Below, piece after piece: positions 12,989 to 51,724 of a stretch of DNA of 56,424 bases. How positions within the stretch are numbered: position 1 is the stretch's first letter; each line of letters opens with the position of its first letter. The stretch comes from Oscillospiraceae bacterium (GTDB taxonomy: Bacteria > Bacillota > Clostridia > Oscillospirales > Acutalibacteraceae). The notes beneath the pieces were generated by a model. The model had not been told where the DNA came from, searched no databases, and saw only the letters and a list, made by a program, of their open reading frames with translations. The stretch lies in assembly GCA_015066225.1 (NCBI GenBank), contig SVOT01000011.1, positions 1-56,424 of the forward strand, given 5' to 3'. Both the position numbers and the translations under genes were made by a program.

Positions 12989-13257
12989 TGCCCTGTTGCA
13001 GGCAGATATGCGTAGATGCAGGAGGTGGCTGCCCTCTGAGGCAGGGAATTTCTGCGGAGTATGTCCGATTTAAAACCGGGCGATTAATAACCGAATACAA
13101 AACTGTTTGCCGTCCTTAACTGTGGCTGCAGATTTGTGTCGGAACGCGAGTTCATCCCGGATTTCCCGTTCCGCTTTTTAAACGGAGCGAGCGATAAGCC
13201 CGGGGGAGTTGTTGAAACTTGCGTACAGCCCGCCAAAAAAATTAGGAGGCGTTACAA
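12960..13257 (+). promoter_or_regulatory. Structured 5' leader of the S10 operon (402 bases without a gene, 12856-13257)
   Basis: The leader has several helices that compete with each other. CTGCC at 13029-13033 can pair with GGCAG at 13001-13005 or with GGCAG at 13040-13044. CGTTCCG at 13167-13173 can pair upstream or downstream (see the attenuator entry). No reading frame with a ribosome binding site is seen before rpsJ. A long structured leader is expected for this operon because r-protein L4 controls it by feedback in E. coli. The binding protein here is unknown, and I cannot match it to a named leader family. Confidence 0.6.
13140..13189 (+). promoter_or_regulatory. Candidate terminator/antiterminator switch in the S10 leader
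   Basis: CGGAACG (13140-13146) pairs with CGTTCCG (13167-13173), which is followed by C and TTTTT (13175-13179), the form of an intrinsic terminator. CGTTCCG can instead pair with CGGAGCG (13183-13189) just downstream, with the T-run in the loop. The two pairings exclude each other, the arrangement expected for transcription attenuation. The terminator stem is only 7 bp with a 20-base loop, so it may be weak. Confidence 0.45.
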
Positions 13258-45759: not shown

Positions 45760-45796
45760 TTAACATTATTTTAACAATATTATTATATACTATAAT
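45760..45796 (+). promoter_or_regulatory. TTAACA tandem repeats and promoter of the two-component pair
   Basis: TTAACA at 45760-45765 and 45771-45776, exactly 11 bp apart, and TATAAT at 45791-45796. This is the spacing of PhoB/PhoP-type boxes (TTAACA-N5-TTAACA), so the response regulator probably controls its own operon. Confidence 0.7.
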
Positions 45797-45817
45797 TTAA
45801 TAAAGAGGTGAAGTATT

Positions 45818-46492
45818 ATGGTTTGTGTATTAGTTGTTGAAGATGACATTCAGTTTAACAGAATAATATGTTCATATCTCAGTGATTTAGGCTACAGTGT
45901 GGTTGGGTGTAACGGTGCGCGGGAAGCGTTAAAAGAGATGGAAAAGATGTCTTTCGATATAATAATTTCCGATATTATGATGAAAGATGTTGACGGATTT
46001 GAGTTTGCAGAGCAGGTAAAAAAGCTGGATAAAGAAATACCATTTTTATTTTTAACTGCTCGTGACGATATTCAATCGAAAGAAAAGGGATACCGTCTGG
46101 GTATAGACGACTATATTGTTAAACCCATAGAAATGCGAGAGCTTCATCTGAGGATTGAGGCGATTTTAAGGCGCGCCAACATAGCCAATAAAAAGAAAAT
46201 TGTAATTGGTGATTTGGTTCTTGATTCCGCTGAAACGGCGGCGTATTATAACGGTGCTGAGTTGGGCTTATCATTAAAAGAATTCAATGTTCTTTTTAAA
46301 CTGTTGTCTTACCCCAAAAGAACATTCACACGGGCTCAGCTTATGAATGATTTTTGGGGATACGATAATGAAAGCACGCCCAGAACTGTTGATGTGTGCA
46401 TAACGAAGCTTAGAAGTAAGATTTCAATGTGTAAGGAAGTTGAAATTGTAACGGTTCACGGTCTTGGTTATAAAGCGGTGGTTCTTGTATGA
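45818..46492 (+). CDS. Response regulator, OmpR/PhoB family
   Basis: 224 residues. Receiver domain with the phospho-acceptor Asp52 in IIISDIMM, acidic pair ED at 8-9, and conserved Lys in DYIVKP near 103. C-terminal winged helix (about 130-224) with 'SLKEFNVLFKLLSYPKRTFT' and 'STPRTVDVCITKLRSKI'. It binds DNA as a dimer on direct repeats when phosphorylated. GAGGTG precedes the ATG. The stop overlaps the kinase gene by 4 bases. The closest known type is PhoP/PhoB, but the signal cannot be stated. Confidence 0.93.
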   Translation: MVCVLVVEDDIQFNRIICSYLSDLGYSVVGCNGAREALKEMEKMSFDIIISDIMMKDVDGFEFAEQVKKLDKEIPFLFLTARDDIQSKEKGYRLGIDDYIVKPIEMRELHLRIEAILRRANIANKKKIVIGDLVLDSAETAAYYNGAELGLSLKEFNVLFKLLSYPKRTFTRAQLMNDFWGYDNESTPRTVDVCITKLRSKISMCKEVEIVTVHGLGYKAVVLV

Positions 46493-47535
46493 AAAGTCAA
46501 TACAAAGAAAAGGAATTTGCCAGCAGAATACGAAATTTTATAGTTGAATTTCTTTCTGTGTTTTTCATTGTGGCATTAAACGGCACGTTTTTGGTTTTGA
46601 TTCTTGTCAATGTGATAGACAAGGGCATTGATAAATACATAACAGCATTGGTGGGTGCACTCTATCTTTTGTTTAGTTGTACAGTATCGACAATTTTGAT
46701 CTATTGGGTAAAAGGGCGTGTTTACAGCAACAAAATAAAAGATTTTTGTGATGCTGCAAAAAAAGTGGCAGCCGGAGATTTCAGCGTAAGAATACCTGTG
46801 TTTTTCAGCAAGCCTAAAACTGAAATGGATTACCTTGCGGTGAATTTCAATAAAATGCTTGTGGAGATTTCTTCGTTGGAGAATATGAGAAATAATTTTG
46901 TTGCGGATGTTTCGCACGAAATAAAAACGCCATTGTGTGTTGTTCAGGGGTATGCCGATTTGTTGCAAAACAAGGAACTGTCAGCGGAAAAGAGAGCAGA
47001 ATATACCCACAGACTTTCGCAGGCCATTGAATCGCTCACAAATCTTGTAACAAATATTCTGAAGATAAACAGAATAGAAAACCAGGAAATTGTTTCCAAA
47101 GAAGAATTTTCTTTGGATGAACAAATTCGTTGTTCTGTTTTAAATTACATAGATAAAATTGAAAATAAAAATATAACCTTGTATATAGATTTAGACGAAG
47201 CAGTAATTTGCAGTGAAAAATCCTTGTTAGAAGCAGTTTGGAATAACTTGATTTCTAATGCGGTCAAATTTACCGACGAGGGTGGGGATATATCAATTTC
47301 CCTGAAAAAAGAAAAGGATTACTTTTGCGTAAAGGTTGCTGATACAGGCTGCGGCATTTCATCTAAAGATATAAACAGAATTTTCGAGAAGTTTTACCAG
47401 TGTGACACCTCTCACTCGCAAGAGGGTAACGGGCTTGGTCTTGCCATGGTGAAACAAATTATCGACAAACTTGGGGGCTCGATAAAGGTTTCAAGTGAAG
47501 TAGGAAAAGGCACGACATTTATTGTATATATTTAA
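46489..47535 (+). CDS. Sensor histidine kinase
   Basis: 348 residues. Two membrane helices (about 18-45 and 50-72) with only a very short loop between them, so it has no extracellular sensor domain and probably senses a membrane partner or membrane state. A HAMP domain ('AKKVAAGDFSVRIPV'), the H-box DVSHEIKTPL with His143, N box 'NNLISNAVKFT', G1 'VADTGCGIS' and G2 'GNGLGLAMV' follow. It should phosphorylate the regulator encoded just before it. Intramembrane kinases of this design often answer to cell-envelope stress. Confidence 0.93.
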   Translation: MKSQYKEKEFASRIRNFIVEFLSVFFIVALNGTFLVLILVNVIDKGIDKYITALVGALYLLFSCTVSTILIYWVKGRVYSNKIKDFCDAAKKVAAGDFSVRIPVFFSKPKTEMDYLAVNFNKMLVEISSLENMRNNFVADVSHEIKTPLCVVQGYADLLQNKELSAEKRAEYTHRLSQAIESLTNLVTNILKINRIENQEIVSKEEFSLDEQIRCSVLNYIDKIENKNITLYIDLDEAVICSEKSLLEAVWNNLISNAVKFTDEGGDISISLKKEKDYFCVKVADTGCGISSKDINRIFEKFYQCDTSHSQEGNGLGLAMVKQIIDKLGGSIKVSSEVGKGTTFIVYI

Positions 47536-47543
47536 TCCACAAC

Positions 47544-47597
47544 TTAACATTTCTTTAACATTTTTTTAACCGAAGTTAAAACTTGATTTGCTAAAAT
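47544..47597 (+). promoter_or_regulatory. Three TTAACA-type repeats and promoter of the radical SAM operon
   Basis: TTAACA at 47544-47549 and 47555-47560 and TTAACC at 47566-47571, each 11 bp after the last, then TAAAAT at 47592-47597. The same half-site and period occur before the response regulator gene (45760), so this operon is a likely direct target. Confidence 0.7.
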
Positions 47598-47628
47598 ACG
47601 TAAGCATTGTTGTATTTCAGAGGTGCTT

Positions 47629-48603
47629 ATGAATTCAAAAAACAAGAAAAGAACTTCGGTTAACTCTTTTTTTTCTTCAAAATATAATAAAGTTGCTTCT
47701 TTGATTGTGGGCTTTGCATTGGTGTTTACAGTTGCAGTTGTGGTGTTCTTTTCGGTAGGTGGCGATCTTCTTTTGAAAAAAGGGGATGTAGGTACCGATA
47801 CATCAACAACAATAATTTATAAAGACGCTTTTATTACTTACGCAAATAAAGAAAACGATTATTTTGACGATGAAGCAGATGATAAAAAACAGAATGATTC
47901 TTCTGGAGCCGCTGTTAACGGGAATACACTACCGGCACAGAACACACCGTCAACACCCAATCTTGAAGACCCATCAGGCTGGTCTCAAGGCAAAATTTTA
48001 GAAAAAGCAAAAAACGCCGTCAATAAAACAAAGCAGTACAAAGGTAGCGTTACGGTTTCTCACAGCGAATCCTTTACGGCAGATGTTACCGAGTGCACAG
48101 GCGGAGAAATTGTAAAAGGTGTTGCAAACATTATGATCGGCTGGATTGTAAAGCCGGTTGATGAAACATTAACCTATAACAACGGTAAGGCAGTGAATTC
48201 AGAAGGGGAGACAATTCCGTTGCTCTTGCCATTGAAGAATAATTTTTCGCTCACTCAAAGCGGGGTAAAATCAGCAAAGGCATATAAAACCGGCACGGAA
48301 TATGTATTGAAAATTTCGCTTGTTGAGGAAAGTGTGGGTATCAATGACGTGCCCACGCATAATGCATCGTCAATTGGCTATCTTGATGTTAAAAACTTCG
48401 ATTTGAGCATATTAACTATAGACAGCGCAAATATTGTTTATAAGGGCTCATCACTTGAGCTTCATATAAATGCAGACGGTTTTGTGACCTATGCAAAATA
48501 CAGTATACCGTTAAATGTCAGCGGCGCAGGCCATAGAGGAAGCATAAGCGGAAGTGCGGTTTTTGACGGAGAGCAAACGGAAATCTGGGATTTTAATTGG
48601 TGA
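47629..48603 (+). CDS. Membrane-anchored extracellular protein, unknown family
   Basis: 324 residues. One membrane helix (about 22-45, 'VASLIVGFALVFTVAVVVFF') after a basic, Ser-rich start, then an Asp/Asn/Ser-rich linker to about 120, then a beta-rich domain of about 200 residues. I do not recognise the domain; the repeated T/S-x-hydrophobic strands resemble lipoprotein folds of the LolA/LppX type, only as an impression. N-in, C-out topology. AGAGGTG precedes the ATG at 47629. It is first in the operon controlled by the TTAACA repeats, so it may be the surface sensor or substrate of the system. Confidence 0.65.
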   Translation: MNSKNKKRTSVNSFFSSKYNKVASLIVGFALVFTVAVVVFFSVGGDLLLKKGDVGTDTSTTIIYKDAFITYANKENDYFDDEADDKKQNDSSGAAVNGNTLPAQNTPSTPNLEDPSGWSQGKILEKAKNAVNKTKQYKGSVTVSHSESFTADVTECTGGEIVKGVANIMIGWIVKPVDETLTYNNGKAVNSEGETIPLLLPLKNNFSLTQSGVKSAKAYKTGTEYVLKISLVEESVGINDVPTHNASSIGYLDVKNFDLSILTIDSANIVYKGSSLELHINADGFVTYAKYSIPLNVSGAGHRGSISGSAVFDGEQTEIWDFNW

Positions 48604-48622
48604 AAACAGAAAGGATGATATT

Positions 48623-50050
48623 ATGGATTTGAAAGGAAAGGCTCTTGAAAAAGCTATTAAAGAAGCTGTGCGTTATGTAAAAAAGGATTACGACACAAAC
48701 CTTTTTAAGCTTATCTCTTGGGGCAAAAAAATGGTTAAGGATGAACTCCATCTTAAGCTGCTCACAAGATTAGAAGAGCGTTTGAGTGACCCCACAAACG
48801 TTTATGCCGATTACGTTAAAAGGGTCATAATGAATACAGATACAAACATTATTGTTAAACTTGTTCCGCCGTTTATAAACGCAGTTGTAAAAAGCTACGA
48901 TATCAGAAAAAAAGCGATGGAGGAGCACAACTGTAATATTCCTTGGGCGGTTCTTATCGATATTACCACAGCTTGCAACCTTAAATGCAAGGGGTGTTGG
49001 GCTGCAGAATACGGCGACAAGCTCAATATGAGCTACGATGATTTGAACAAAATAATTCAGGAAGGCAAAGCCGTTGGTACTTATGTTTACCTTTACACAG
49101 GCGGTGAGCCCCTTGTTCGCAAAAATGATATTATACGTCTTTGTAAAGAAAATCCGGATTGCCTTTTCCACGCATTTACAAACGGTACTCTTTGCGATGA
49201 CCAGTTCGTGAAGGACGTTAAGGAAGTAGGTAATCTGCTTGTAACCATTTCTATTGAAGGCAATGAAGAAACAACAGATTCCCGCCGTGGAAAGGGTACA
49301 TACAAAGCGACGATTGACGCTATGGCTCGTTTGAAAGCAAACGGCATTCCCTTCGGTAACTCCTTGTGTTACACAAAAGAAAACGCCGATGTTATTTCCT
49401 CAGATGAGTATGTTGATTTCCTTATTGAGCAGGGTGCAGTCTTTGCGTGGGTATTTTCATTTGTGCCGGTAGGCTGTGGTGCTACTGCAGAGCTTATGGC
49501 TACAGCTGAACAAAGAGAAAGAATGTACAACCAGGTTCGCAAGTGGCGTTTCAAAGAGGTAAAGCCCCTTGTTATGATAGACTTCTTTAACGATGGTGAG
49601 TATGTCGGTGGATGTGTTGCCGGTGGTAAGCAGTATTTCCATATCAGTGCAAACGGAGACTGTGAGCCTTGTGTATTTGCTCACTATTCTAACGTTAATA
49701 TCAAAGACCCCGACACACATTTTATAGATGCACTTAAGAGCCCCATATTTATGGCATACAAGGCACGTCAGCCGTTTTCGGATAATATGCTTCGTGCTTG
49801 TCCTATTGTTGATAATCCCGGTGCTATCAAGAAGATTGTTGAAGAATCCGGTGCAAAATCCACAGACCTTCAGTCGCCTGAAAAGGTTGAGGACTTAATC
49901 GGTAAAACAATGGATGTTGCTAAAAAGTGGAAAGAAACTGCCGATAAAATGGCGGCTGAGCACGGCTTTATTCAGTGGCATATTCGTAGTGTTGATATAT
50001 ACAGAGACTATGAGTCAGAGCATATTAAGGACTATGAAGACTTTGAATAA
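48623..50050 (+). CDS. Radical SAM enzyme with Cys-rich C-terminal region
   Basis: 475 residues. Helical N-terminal part (about 1-105), then a radical SAM core: CNLKCKGCW (Cys118, 122, 125), 'YLYTGGEPLVRK' for SAM binding and 'AFTNGTL', 'TISIEGNEE'. The C-terminal third has more Cys (GGC near 330, GDCEPC, RACP) that may hold an extra iron-sulfur cluster in SPASM manner. No cobalamin domain. The product is unknown; family relatives modify peptides, lipids or cofactors. AAGGATG precedes the ATG at 48623. The serine hydrolase gene overlaps its end by 17 bases. Confidence 0.85.
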   Translation: MDLKGKALEKAIKEAVRYVKKDYDTNLFKLISWGKKMVKDELHLKLLTRLEERLSDPTNVYADYVKRVIMNTDTNIIVKLVPPFINAVVKSYDIRKKAMEEHNCNIPWAVLIDITTACNLKCKGCWAAEYGDKLNMSYDDLNKIIQEGKAVGTYVYLYTGGEPLVRKNDIIRLCKENPDCLFHAFTNGTLCDDQFVKDVKEVGNLLVTISIEGNEETTDSRRGKGTYKATIDAMARLKANGIPFGNSLCYTKENADVISSDEYVDFLIEQGAVFAWVFSFVPVGCGATAELMATAEQRERMYNQVRKWRFKEVKPLVMIDFFNDGEYVGGCVAGGKQYFHISANGDCEPCVFAHYSNVNIKDPDTHFIDALKSPIFMAYKARQPFSDNMLRACPIVDNPGAIKKIVEESGAKSTDLQSPEKVEDLIGKTMDVAKKWKETADKMAAEHGFIQWHIRSVDIYRDYESEHIKDYEDFE

Positions 50051-51620
50051 ATCAATTGAAAGAGCTAAAACACCTGAATCTGTAGGTATAGACTCCTCGG
50101 TTATCTTAAAGATGACCGAGGAAATGTCATATAGAGGTATAAATACTCACAGCTTAATGATTATAAGAAATAATATGGTCGCTTGTGAAGCCTGGAGCGA
50201 ACCGCTGGGCCCGGAAATACCGCATATGGTTTATTCAGTTAGCAAAAGCTTTTTGTCAACAGCCTATGGCTTCGCTTTGGCTGAAGGTAAAATAACGCGA
50301 GAAACAAAGCTGGTTGATGTGTTTCCCGAGCTTTTGAAAAAACGTGATGCATTTTTAGAAAAGCTTACAATTCATCATCTGTTGTGTATGACAGCAGGTA
50401 AGCAAACCGCAATCCGTGGTAGTAAAAGTGATGACTGGCTGAATGTGTTTGCAGAGGCAAAATGGATTTTTGAACCCGGTACAAGCTGGCGTTATGTTAA
50501 CGATAATTACTATGTTGCTTCAAAAATGCTTTGCGCTGTTTTGGGTGAGAGTATAACAGAATATCTTACGCCCCGTTTGTATGACCCTTTGGGAATTGAT
50601 GTTCCCTTTTGGGAGCACTCACCCGATGGCGTTGAGTCAGGGGGCTGGGGCTTGATGCTTAAAACCGAAGACATTGCAAAATTTATACTTTGCTATCAGA
50701 ACAACGGTAAATATAACGGCGAACAGATAATTCCCGAATGGTGGACAAAAGAGGCAACCGGCTTTATAACAGATAATTCTGTCAGTGAAAAAGCCCCGGA
50801 TGCCGGTGCGGGCTACGGTTGCGGCTTTTGGCGGTGCGCAGGTATGCCGAACACTTACAGATGTGAGGGGATGTTTTGTCAATATGCTATTTCCTTTGAG
50901 GATTATAACGCTTGTTTGGTTATGACCTCGGAGCACAGCGATCTGCAGGAAACGCTGGATGTTATATGGAAATATATGCCACGTGCATTTATCGAGCCCG
51001 ATTCGGAAAAAAAGACCTGCAAAATAACCTTGCCTGACAGAACGGCAGTTACAGTACCAAACCGTAATGAAACAGAAGGTTTAATAAACGGGAAAATATA
51101 CAATTTACGAAAATGCAGATTTATTAATTTTATCGGCTTCCCTGTAAGTGTTTTGCCTATGCCGATTGTTTTCTTTGCTAAAGACAGAGGGGGCAATATG
51201 AACGAGCTTCGTTTTTGCTTTTCAGAGAAGGGGTGCACTTTTTCTTGGAGTGAAGACGGTGGCTTTAAAAATGAAATTTTTATTTCTATGAACGGCGAGG
51301 CATCTTTTGATGAGGTTGTTATCGGAGAGCTTAAAATGCTTGTTCGCTCGTACGGGTTTTGGGAGAAAGACAAAACACTGGTAATGCACATAAGACCGCT
51401 GGCGTCGGTGTCTGAAAGAGTTTTGAAATTTGAGTTCAGTAAAAACCGAATTAAAATGTATCCGAGCTATATTCCGGGTACAGATGAGAAAGCCAAAAAA
51501 GTGGGCGAAAAATTAAAGTGTATTTTAATTGGAAAATGGTTTCACTGGTGGATAGATTTTCTTGTTCCGAGAGTTGGGCGGATTCTTAACCCGACACATT
51601 ACGGTAAAGCACAAAAATAG
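50034..51620 (+). CDS. Serine hydrolase, beta-lactamase/PBP class C fold
   Basis: About 528 residues. The SxxK motif SVSK (Ser68, Lys71) and YVN (Tyr154) are clear; the third motif, usually HxG or KTG, is replaced in the region around 'GYGCGFW'. The C-terminal 170 residues add a beta-rich domain. No signal peptide is seen, so it is cytosolic unless exported in another way. Such proteins act as esterases or D-aminopeptidases. ATG at 50034 overlaps the radical SAM gene by 17 bases, with AAGG 5 bases upstream. It is last in the operon and closed by a terminator. Confidence 0.78.
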   Translation: MKTLNKSIERAKTPESVGIDSSVILKMTEEMSYRGINTHSLMIIRNNMVACEAWSEPLGPEIPHMVYSVSKSFLSTAYGFALAEGKITRETKLVDVFPELLKKRDAFLEKLTIHHLLCMTAGKQTAIRGSKSDDWLNVFAEAKWIFEPGTSWRYVNDNYYVASKMLCAVLGESITEYLTPRLYDPLGIDVPFWEHSPDGVESGGWGLMLKTEDIAKFILCYQNNGKYNGEQIIPEWWTKEATGFITDNSVSEKAPDAGAGYGCGFWRCAGMPNTYRCEGMFCQYAISFEDYNACLVMTSEHSDLQETLDVIWKYMPRAFIEPDSEKKTCKITLPDRTAVTVPNRNETEGLINGKIYNLRKCRFINFIGFPVSVLPMPIVFFAKDRGGNMNELRFCFSEKGCTFSWSEDGGFKNEIFISMNGEASFDEVVIGELKMLVRSYGFWEKDKTLVMHIRPLASVSERVLKFEFSKNRIKMYPSYIPGTDEKAKKVGEKLKCILIGKWFHWWIDFLVPRVGRILNPTHYGKAQK

Positions 51621-51691
51621 ATGATAATGCTGCATTGTTTGATAGACTGTGATGTAAAGGATATTAAACAATGGGGGATATATCAAAAGCG

Positions 51692-51724
51692 ACCGACTTT
51701 TCCGAAATCGGAAGGGTCGGTTTT
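51692..51724 (+). terminator. Terminator of the radical SAM operon
   Basis: ACCGAC..TTCCG (51692-51704) pairs with CGGAA..GTCGGT (51709-51721) around AAAT, with two T-G pairs in the middle and TTT after. It ends the serine hydrolase unit. Confidence 0.8.

What the first reader, a model, noticed from the sequence alone, without database searches (positions are those of the whole stretch)
45760..51724. Two-component system wired to a membrane protein, radical SAM enzyme and serine hydrolase by shared TTAACA repeats
TTAACA direct repeats with exact 11-bp period occur twice in this window: in front of the response regulator gene (two copies) and in front of the membrane-protein/radical SAM/serine hydrolase operon (three copies). 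This is the half-site spacing known for OmpR/PhoB-type regulators. The kinase has two close helices and almost no sensor domain, as in envelope-stress kinases that take their signal from a membrane partner. A controlled operon of an anchored protein, a radical SAM enzyme and a hydrolase looks like an inducible surface or lipid/peptide modification system. I know of no described system with this set.
Basis: partly seen in the sequence, partly recalled or inferred. Interest (0 to 1): 0.72.

Follow-up and report, generated by a model that had tools for sequence, protein, structure and literature searches.

The report
Sensor-controlled radical SAM envelope operon
In an uncultured group of gut bacteria, a two-gene sensor system appears to switch on itself and a neighbouring three-gene set (an anchored surface protein and two enzymes) through the same repeated DNA signal; what the enzymes make is still unknown.

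Summary
TTAACA-N5-TTAACA ends 41 bp before the response regulator (RR) gene; a three-repeat array (third copy TTAACC) lies before the anchored-protein/radical SAM/serine-hydrolase genes (MEM-rSAM-SERH). At up to one mismatch the window has 4 matches, 0.67 expected. Relatives support the wiring: the site stands before MEM in 14 of 14 genomes with RR-HK beside it (up to 2 mismatches; 12 at up to 1), also where RR-HK is inverted, and in 0 of 3 with no RR seen beside it. A -10-like hexamer starts 9 bp after the repeats in 16 of 19 colinear promoters, but not in the window's own MEM promoter nor in the five inverted loci. A like site precedes metK (SAM synthetase) in 7 of 10 genomes with the close RR and 0 of 11 readable others. 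MEM's ectodomain may have a LolA/RseB/LprG-like fold (poor model; plain Foldseek found nothing significant). Best reading: an autoregulated, intramembrane-sensing, PhoB-type system inducing an envelope-modification operon, perhaps acting on lipids. Binding, signal and chemistry are untested; WalR-type regulators use the same box reversed and remain a rival. New variant of a known kind.

The parts
45760..45776 (+). TTAACA-N5-TTAACA, proposed RR box of the RR-HK promoter
   Evidence: conserved before RR in 10 of 10 colinear loci at up to 2 mismatches, 9 of 10 at up to 1
45786..45791 (+). candidate -10 hexamer TATACT, 9 bp after the second half-site; a better-matching TATAAT overlaps it at 45791-45796
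45818..46492 (+). response regulator, OmpR/PhoB type
   Evidence: Pfam PF00072 E 5e-26, PF00486 E 2e-19
46489..47535 (+). histidine kinase with two close membrane helices, HAMP-like region, HisKA, HATPase_c
   Evidence: overlaps the RR gene by 4 bases
47544..47571 (+). three 11-bp-spaced repeats TTAACA/TTAACA/TTAACC, proposed RR box of the MEM operon
   Evidence: a two-repeat site is kept before MEM in 14 of 14 loci with RR-HK beside it at up to 2 mismatches
47592..47597 (+). candidate -10 hexamer TAAAAT, 31 bp after the second half-site (9 + 2 x 11), not at the usual +9
47623..48603 (+). MEM: N-terminal membrane anchor, disordered linker, ectodomain with a tentative LolA/RseB/LprG-like fold
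   Evidence: no Pfam or NCBIfam match
48623..50050 (+). radical SAM enzyme, CX3CX2C at 118-125 plus three invariant C-terminal cysteines (331, 350, 393)
   Evidence: PF04055 E 1.5e-20; invariant in 29 aligned sequences
50034..51620 (+). SERH: beta-lactamase-fold serine hydrolase or acyltransferase-like protein, S68-x-x-K71 and Y154-x-N156 invariant in 11 aligned sequences; overlaps the rSAM gene by 17 bases
   Evidence: PF00144 E 1.2e-19; NF045925 E 2.9e-45 but 155 of 800 bits

Best explanation
An autoregulated PhoB-type two-component system with an intramembrane-sensing kinase controls an envelope-modification operon. The kinase detects a state of the membrane, directly or through a partner; phosphorylated RR binds the 11-bp-spaced TTAACA repeats, which take the place of a -35 box 9 bp (or 9 + 11n) before the -10, and activates RR-HK and MEM-rSAM-SERH. 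In part of this genus it probably also raises metK, and so the supply of SAM. MEM is a membrane-anchored, perhaps hydrophobic-pocket (LolA/RseB/LprG-like) protein that presents or senses a lipid; rSAM and the beta-lactamase-fold SERH modify that lipid or a lipid-linked group. Shown by computation: gene order, co-occurrence, site conservation, -10 phasing in the colinear loci. Inferred: binding and activation. Weakly inferred: that the substrate is a lipid.
Confidence: 0.6

Rival explanations
1. The repeats are boxes of the genome's WalR-like or another general OmpR-type regulator; the local RR need not bind them, and the operon belongs to a general cell-wall regulon.
For: TTAACA-N5-TTAACA reversed is TGTTAA-N5-TGTTAA; a WalR study lists TTAACACTACCTTAACA and similar as predicted sites (PMC5405149, passages seen). 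Sites recur beside secreted and envelope genes across the genus, some in genomes without this RR, G004 and G005.
Against: Site numbers rise clearly over the control only where the close RR is present, 36:5 against 22:15 and 7:6; MEM operons with no RR seen beside them lack the site; metK sites track the close RR.
Confidence: 0.2
2. Cell-wall rather than lipid output: SERH and neighbours remodel peptidoglycan or its precursors after cell-wall-active stress, in the niche of VanRS or LiaRS (recalled), with rSAM in a supporting role.
For: SERH has the PBP/beta-lactamase fold; a secreted VanY-type D,D-carboxypeptidase or its close relative follows SERH in G008 and G020 and HK in G017; an LCP-family gene follows in the window.
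Against: At the start shared with relatives SERH has no N-terminal hydrophobic stretch, so it should be cytosolic (a longer frame from 49914, would add one); its best NCBIfam model is a bile-acid acyl synthetase, below cut-off.
Confidence: 0.25
3. Peptide or protein maturation: rSAM is a SPASM-like maturase of an unseen peptide or of MEM itself (one invariant cysteine, C156, in the six MEM sequences aligned).
For: Nearest solved relatives of rSAM by sequence are SkfB and a second chain named only 'Radical SAM' (5v1q, which I recall as SuiB); MEM and rSAM are adjacent also in G034.
Against: No small precursor-like frame stood out by eye in the three intergenic stretches read; G010 has rSAM-SERH without MEM; rSAM is below the cut-off of each of the 25 best models shown, of 64.
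Confidence: 0.15

Closest known systems
PhoB/PhoP-type response regulators and pho-box promoters (recalled)
   Same: OmpR/PhoB RR; 11-bp-spaced direct half-sites in place of the -35, in phase with the -10
   Different: Kinase lacks a large sensor domain; RR and HK are below the cut-offs of the 25 best NCBIfam models shown for each, of 98 and 91; the operon is not a phosphate operon
WalRK (YycFG)
   Same: Box is the same sequence read on the other strand (PMC5405149, passages)
   Different: RR 125 of 340 bits for YycF, HK 164 of 725 for WalK; a different own-genome RR at C8:126164, 30% identical, looks WalR-like by recall only
C. difficile HexRK-hexSDF and DraRS (PMC10601699, passages)
   Same: Clostridial two-component system controlling a small operon that changes membrane lipids in envelope stress
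   Different: hexSDF codes for a glycosyltransferase-like synthase, a deacetylase and a flippase; no radical SAM enzyme and no LolA-like protein in the passages
LolA / RseB / MucB / LprG superfamily
   Same: Predicted MEM ectodomain: helix plus antiparallel sheet; rows 1-15
   Different: MEM is membrane-anchored with a long linker, has no sequence match, and the model is of low confidence
[quoted passage not shown]
   Same: Enzymes joining lipid tails (Tes a radical SAM enzyme, PMC9433317 passages; Mss likewise by recall); Mss plus Ger homologs reported in 277 Oscillospiraceae and 561 Lachnospiraceae species (PMC13274423, passages)
   Different: No Mss sequence was available here; our rSAM profile matches Tes only weakly, in the core (E 2.6e-4)
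3-succinylated cholic acid synthase (BAS-suc; PMC11749272, passages)
   Same: Beta-lactamase-type protein used for acylation; best NCBIfam match of SERH
   Different: 155 bits against a cut-off of 800

Membership tests
OmpR/PhoB two-component system | RR with receiver and winged-helix output domains; HK with HisKA and HATPase_c | tested here: met
   all four over the Pfam cut-offs
OmpR/PhoB two-component system | Direct-repeat half-sites with 11-bp period before target promoters | tested here: met
   binding itself not tested
Intramembrane-sensing kinase | Two membrane helices with a very short loop and no cytosolic sensor domain | tested here: met
   hydropathy; besides the catalytic domains only a HAMP match below cut-off
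PhoPR phosphate system | Match to PhoB or PhoR-type models at cut-off | tested here: not met
   RR best 171 of 270 bits, HK (PnpS) 205 of 400 bits
WalRK | Match to the YycF and WalK models at cut-off | tested here: not met
   RR 125 of 340 bits; HK 164 of 725 bits
Radical SAM superfamily | CX3CX2C cluster motif in a PF04055 domain | tested here: met
Membrane-spanning lipid synthase Mss | Homology to the verified Mss (authors used E<=1e-30, identity >30%) | not testable with these tools
   sequence not held; criterion read in PMC13274423
RiPP radical SAM maturases | At the cut-off of a maturase model among those shown | tested here: not met
   best 25 of 64 models shown, all far below cut-off
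RiPP radical SAM maturases | Precursor peptide gene nearby | tested here: inconclusive
   three intergenic stretches read by eye, none stood out
3-succinylated cholic acid synthase | NF045925 at cut-off | tested here: not met
   155 of 800 bits
Class C beta-lactamase/PBP-fold serine enzymes | PF00144 with SxxK and YxN | tested here: met
   the third (KTG-like) motif was not located
LolA/RseB/LprG superfamily (MEM) | Half-barrel fold by structure comparison | tested here: inconclusive

The most novel reading that the evidence does not exclude
An inducible membrane-lipid remodelling regulon: an intramembrane kinase, with MEM as a lipid-binding co-sensor that feeds back on it, switches on a radical SAM enzyme that alters or couples acyl chains and a beta-lactamase-fold acyltransferase, together with metK to pay for the SAM used.
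Probability: 0.17. Interest if true: 0.8.

Novelty: new variant of a known kind. Interest (0 to 1): 0.52.

Why it matters
It ties an uncharacterised kind of radical SAM enzyme to a definite regulator, a promoter code and two partner proteins, which makes its function testable by induction. If the metK link holds, it is a regulon that raises SAM supply together with a SAM-consuming enzyme. It also offers a natural experiment: relatives that lack the regulator, the operon, or both.

Tried and rejected
Whether rSAM is an Mss: the defining paper is not held, and the passages seen of the Mss papers gave no Mss accession, so it stays open. rSAM structure: model too poor (mean pLDDT 48) and therefore not searched. 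A viral-contig scan for more rSAM relatives gave one partial match. MEM relatives across the order: only the window's own genome among 394 drawn evenly, though G034 in the same family has a 43% match by the locus scan. PhoU in the genome gave only a match below its cut-off. SAM riboswitch before metK: none at Rfam's gathering scores. RR paralog loci (54-59% identical) read in G001, G008, G013, G020, G023, G024: no repeats at up to 1 mismatch next to their RR genes. Sites recurring beside other genes (640-aa secreted/160-aa lipoprotein pair, PF00198-like/ABC exporter pair and others) were not assigned to this RR.

Rows and limits: the G004 metK row is invalid, because no sequence is held before that gene; it is dropped, which leaves 11 genomes without the close RR. 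G016 gave 257 bases there, the rest 300. In one search some MEM starts could not be set and the upstream stretch was taken from where the protein match begins. In one search the mean for the colinear set leaves out the window's own MEM promoter; the full-set mean is given beside it. The spacer count over other own-genome pieces is biased, since those pieces were fetched for holding a site; only the window count is used. In some searches palindromic sites and overlapping arrays count more than once, and G015 is grouped by an RR fragment on another contig. The Fisher values ignore relatedness (and use the unmended metK count) and are not quoted.

Full report
What is there. Five genes on the + strand at 45818-51620 form two units: RR-HK (overlap of 4 bases) and MEM-rSAM-SERH (MEM ends at 48603 and rSAM starts at 48623; rSAM and SERH overlap by 17 bases). 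Upstream is spoVAE, downstream an LCP-family gene. TTAACA repeats with an 11-bp period stand before both units: two copies at 45760-45776, three at 47544-47571, the last TTAACC. At up to 1 mismatch the window has 4 matches against 0.67 expected, and no shuffle of 100 reached 4. The whole genome (2.04 Mb) has 7 exact matches at 6 places, the reversed control 1.

Who carries it. The five named relatives found are metagenome-assembled genomes, four labelled Clostridia from goat, cattle and deer gut and one labelled Oscillospiraceae. Among the 22 genus genomes, counting the window's own, rSAM orthologs (at least 60% identity) and SERH orthologs (at least 53%) are in the same 17 genomes; G004, G005, G009, G017 and G019 have only more distant relatives of each. 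The neighbourhoods show nine loci with the window's order (G000, G003, G006, G007, G008, G012, G013, G014, G020), five with RR-HK divergent from MEM-rSAM-SERH (G001, G002, G011, G018, G021), G015 cut by its contig end, G016 without RR-HK, and G010 with rSAM-SERH only. G017 has spoVAE-RR-HK followed by a VanY-type carboxypeptidase gene and no MEM-rSAM-SERH. In G004 spoVAE is followed directly by the LCP gene. In G005 it is followed by a relative of the VanY-type gene, without RR-HK. G034, another genus of the family, has MEM next to rSAM but neither RR nor SERH beside them in the stretch read. A profile of MEM found only the window's own genome among 394 genomes of the order.

The promoter code. 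Before MEM, the site is present at up to 2 mismatches in 14 of 14 loci with RR-HK beside it (12 of 14 at up to 1) and in 0 of 3 with no RR seen beside it (G015, G016, G034); before RR it is present in 10 of 10 colinear loci including G017 (9 of 10 at up to 1). In mononucleotide shuffles of upstream regions of two other genes, up to 1 mismatch turned up in 0-4% of 100 shuffles each. In the divergent loci there is one site, near MEM and 150-188 bp before the RR start. Downstream of the last half-site a -10-like hexamer (at least 4 of 6 matches) begins after exactly 9 bp in 16 of 19 colinear promoters. The three exceptions are the window's own MEM promoter, whose hexamer lies at +31, and both G008 promoters, with hexamers at +20, i.e. 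further whole 11-bp turns. Without the window's MEM promoter the colinear mean at +9 is 4.61 against at most 3.33 at any other offset from 0 to 35; over all 24 promoters it is 3.96 against at most 2.92. In the five divergent loci there is no hexamer at +9, and in 6 of 10 RR promoters another offset matches better. This is the arrangement recalled for PhoB-activated promoters, where the box replaces the -35.

A wider set of targets. Exact sites over the genus number 79 against 26 for the control. Outside this locus there are 36 against 5 in the 10 genomes with the close RR, 22 against 15 in the 6 with the divergent RR, and 7 against 6 in the 6 without. Read gene by gene, metK stands out: a site at up to 1 mismatch, always antisense at -91 to -143, in 7 of 10 genomes with the close RR and in 0 of 11 others that could be read. 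A site just before a secreted hydrolase-like gene (divergent from a methyltransferase gene where that was seen) is in 7 of 10 of the same genomes but also in 3 of 9 others, among them G005, which lacks RR-HK. So some sites are likely read by another regulator. The obvious candidate is WalR, whose box is the same sequence reversed (PMC5405149, passages).

Interpretation. The comparative data support an autoregulated PhoB-type system that controls MEM-rSAM-SERH; activation rather than repression is inferred from the position of the box. The chemistry is open. A lipid reading rests on MEM's tentative fold, on an acylating relative of SERH and on the report of lipid-joining Mss enzymes in Clostridia (PMC13274423, passages). 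A cell-wall reading rests on SERH's fold and on the VanY and LCP neighbours. C. difficile HexRK-hexSDF (PMC10601699, passages) is the closest known analogue in logic. The listings of two library searches showed no description of this set; the library holds open-licence papers only.

Noticed in passing
G000:C15:43524-43551 (L056 7525-7552): Three perfect TTAACA repeats with 11-bp period upstream of metK, antisense to it; sites there track the close RR across the genus.
   Followed up: yes
G000:C12:327293, G000:C3:400803, G000:C16:688: Exact sites abutting two related secreted hydrolase-like genes and one between a gtrA-like and a HlyIII-family gene; the regulator is uncertain.
   Followed up: partly
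L118, L120, L127, L134, L138, L146, L153, L155, L166, L170: A ~640-aa secreted protein gene divergent from a ~160-aa lipoprotein-like gene with an exact TTAACA-N5-TTAACA site between them, also in genomes without this RR; the one pair scanned, L118, matched nothing in Pfam.
   Followed up: partly
L083 7632-8573 (G034); L145, L162, L174: A stand-alone PF00198-like acyltransferase follows MEM-rSAM in G034; relatives of it lie beside an ABC exporter gene with a TTAACA site between in G008, G013, G007.
   Followed up: partly
L070 11342-13084, L071 5202-6860, L184 8520-10142: Related secreted proteins, VanY-type D,D-carboxypeptidases in the two scanned (L070, L184), lie just downstream of SERH or HK; by eye the window carries a similar stretch at 692-1558.
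   Followed up: partly
window 13005-13083: S10-Clostridia ribosomal protein leader RNA (RF03136).
   Followed up: no
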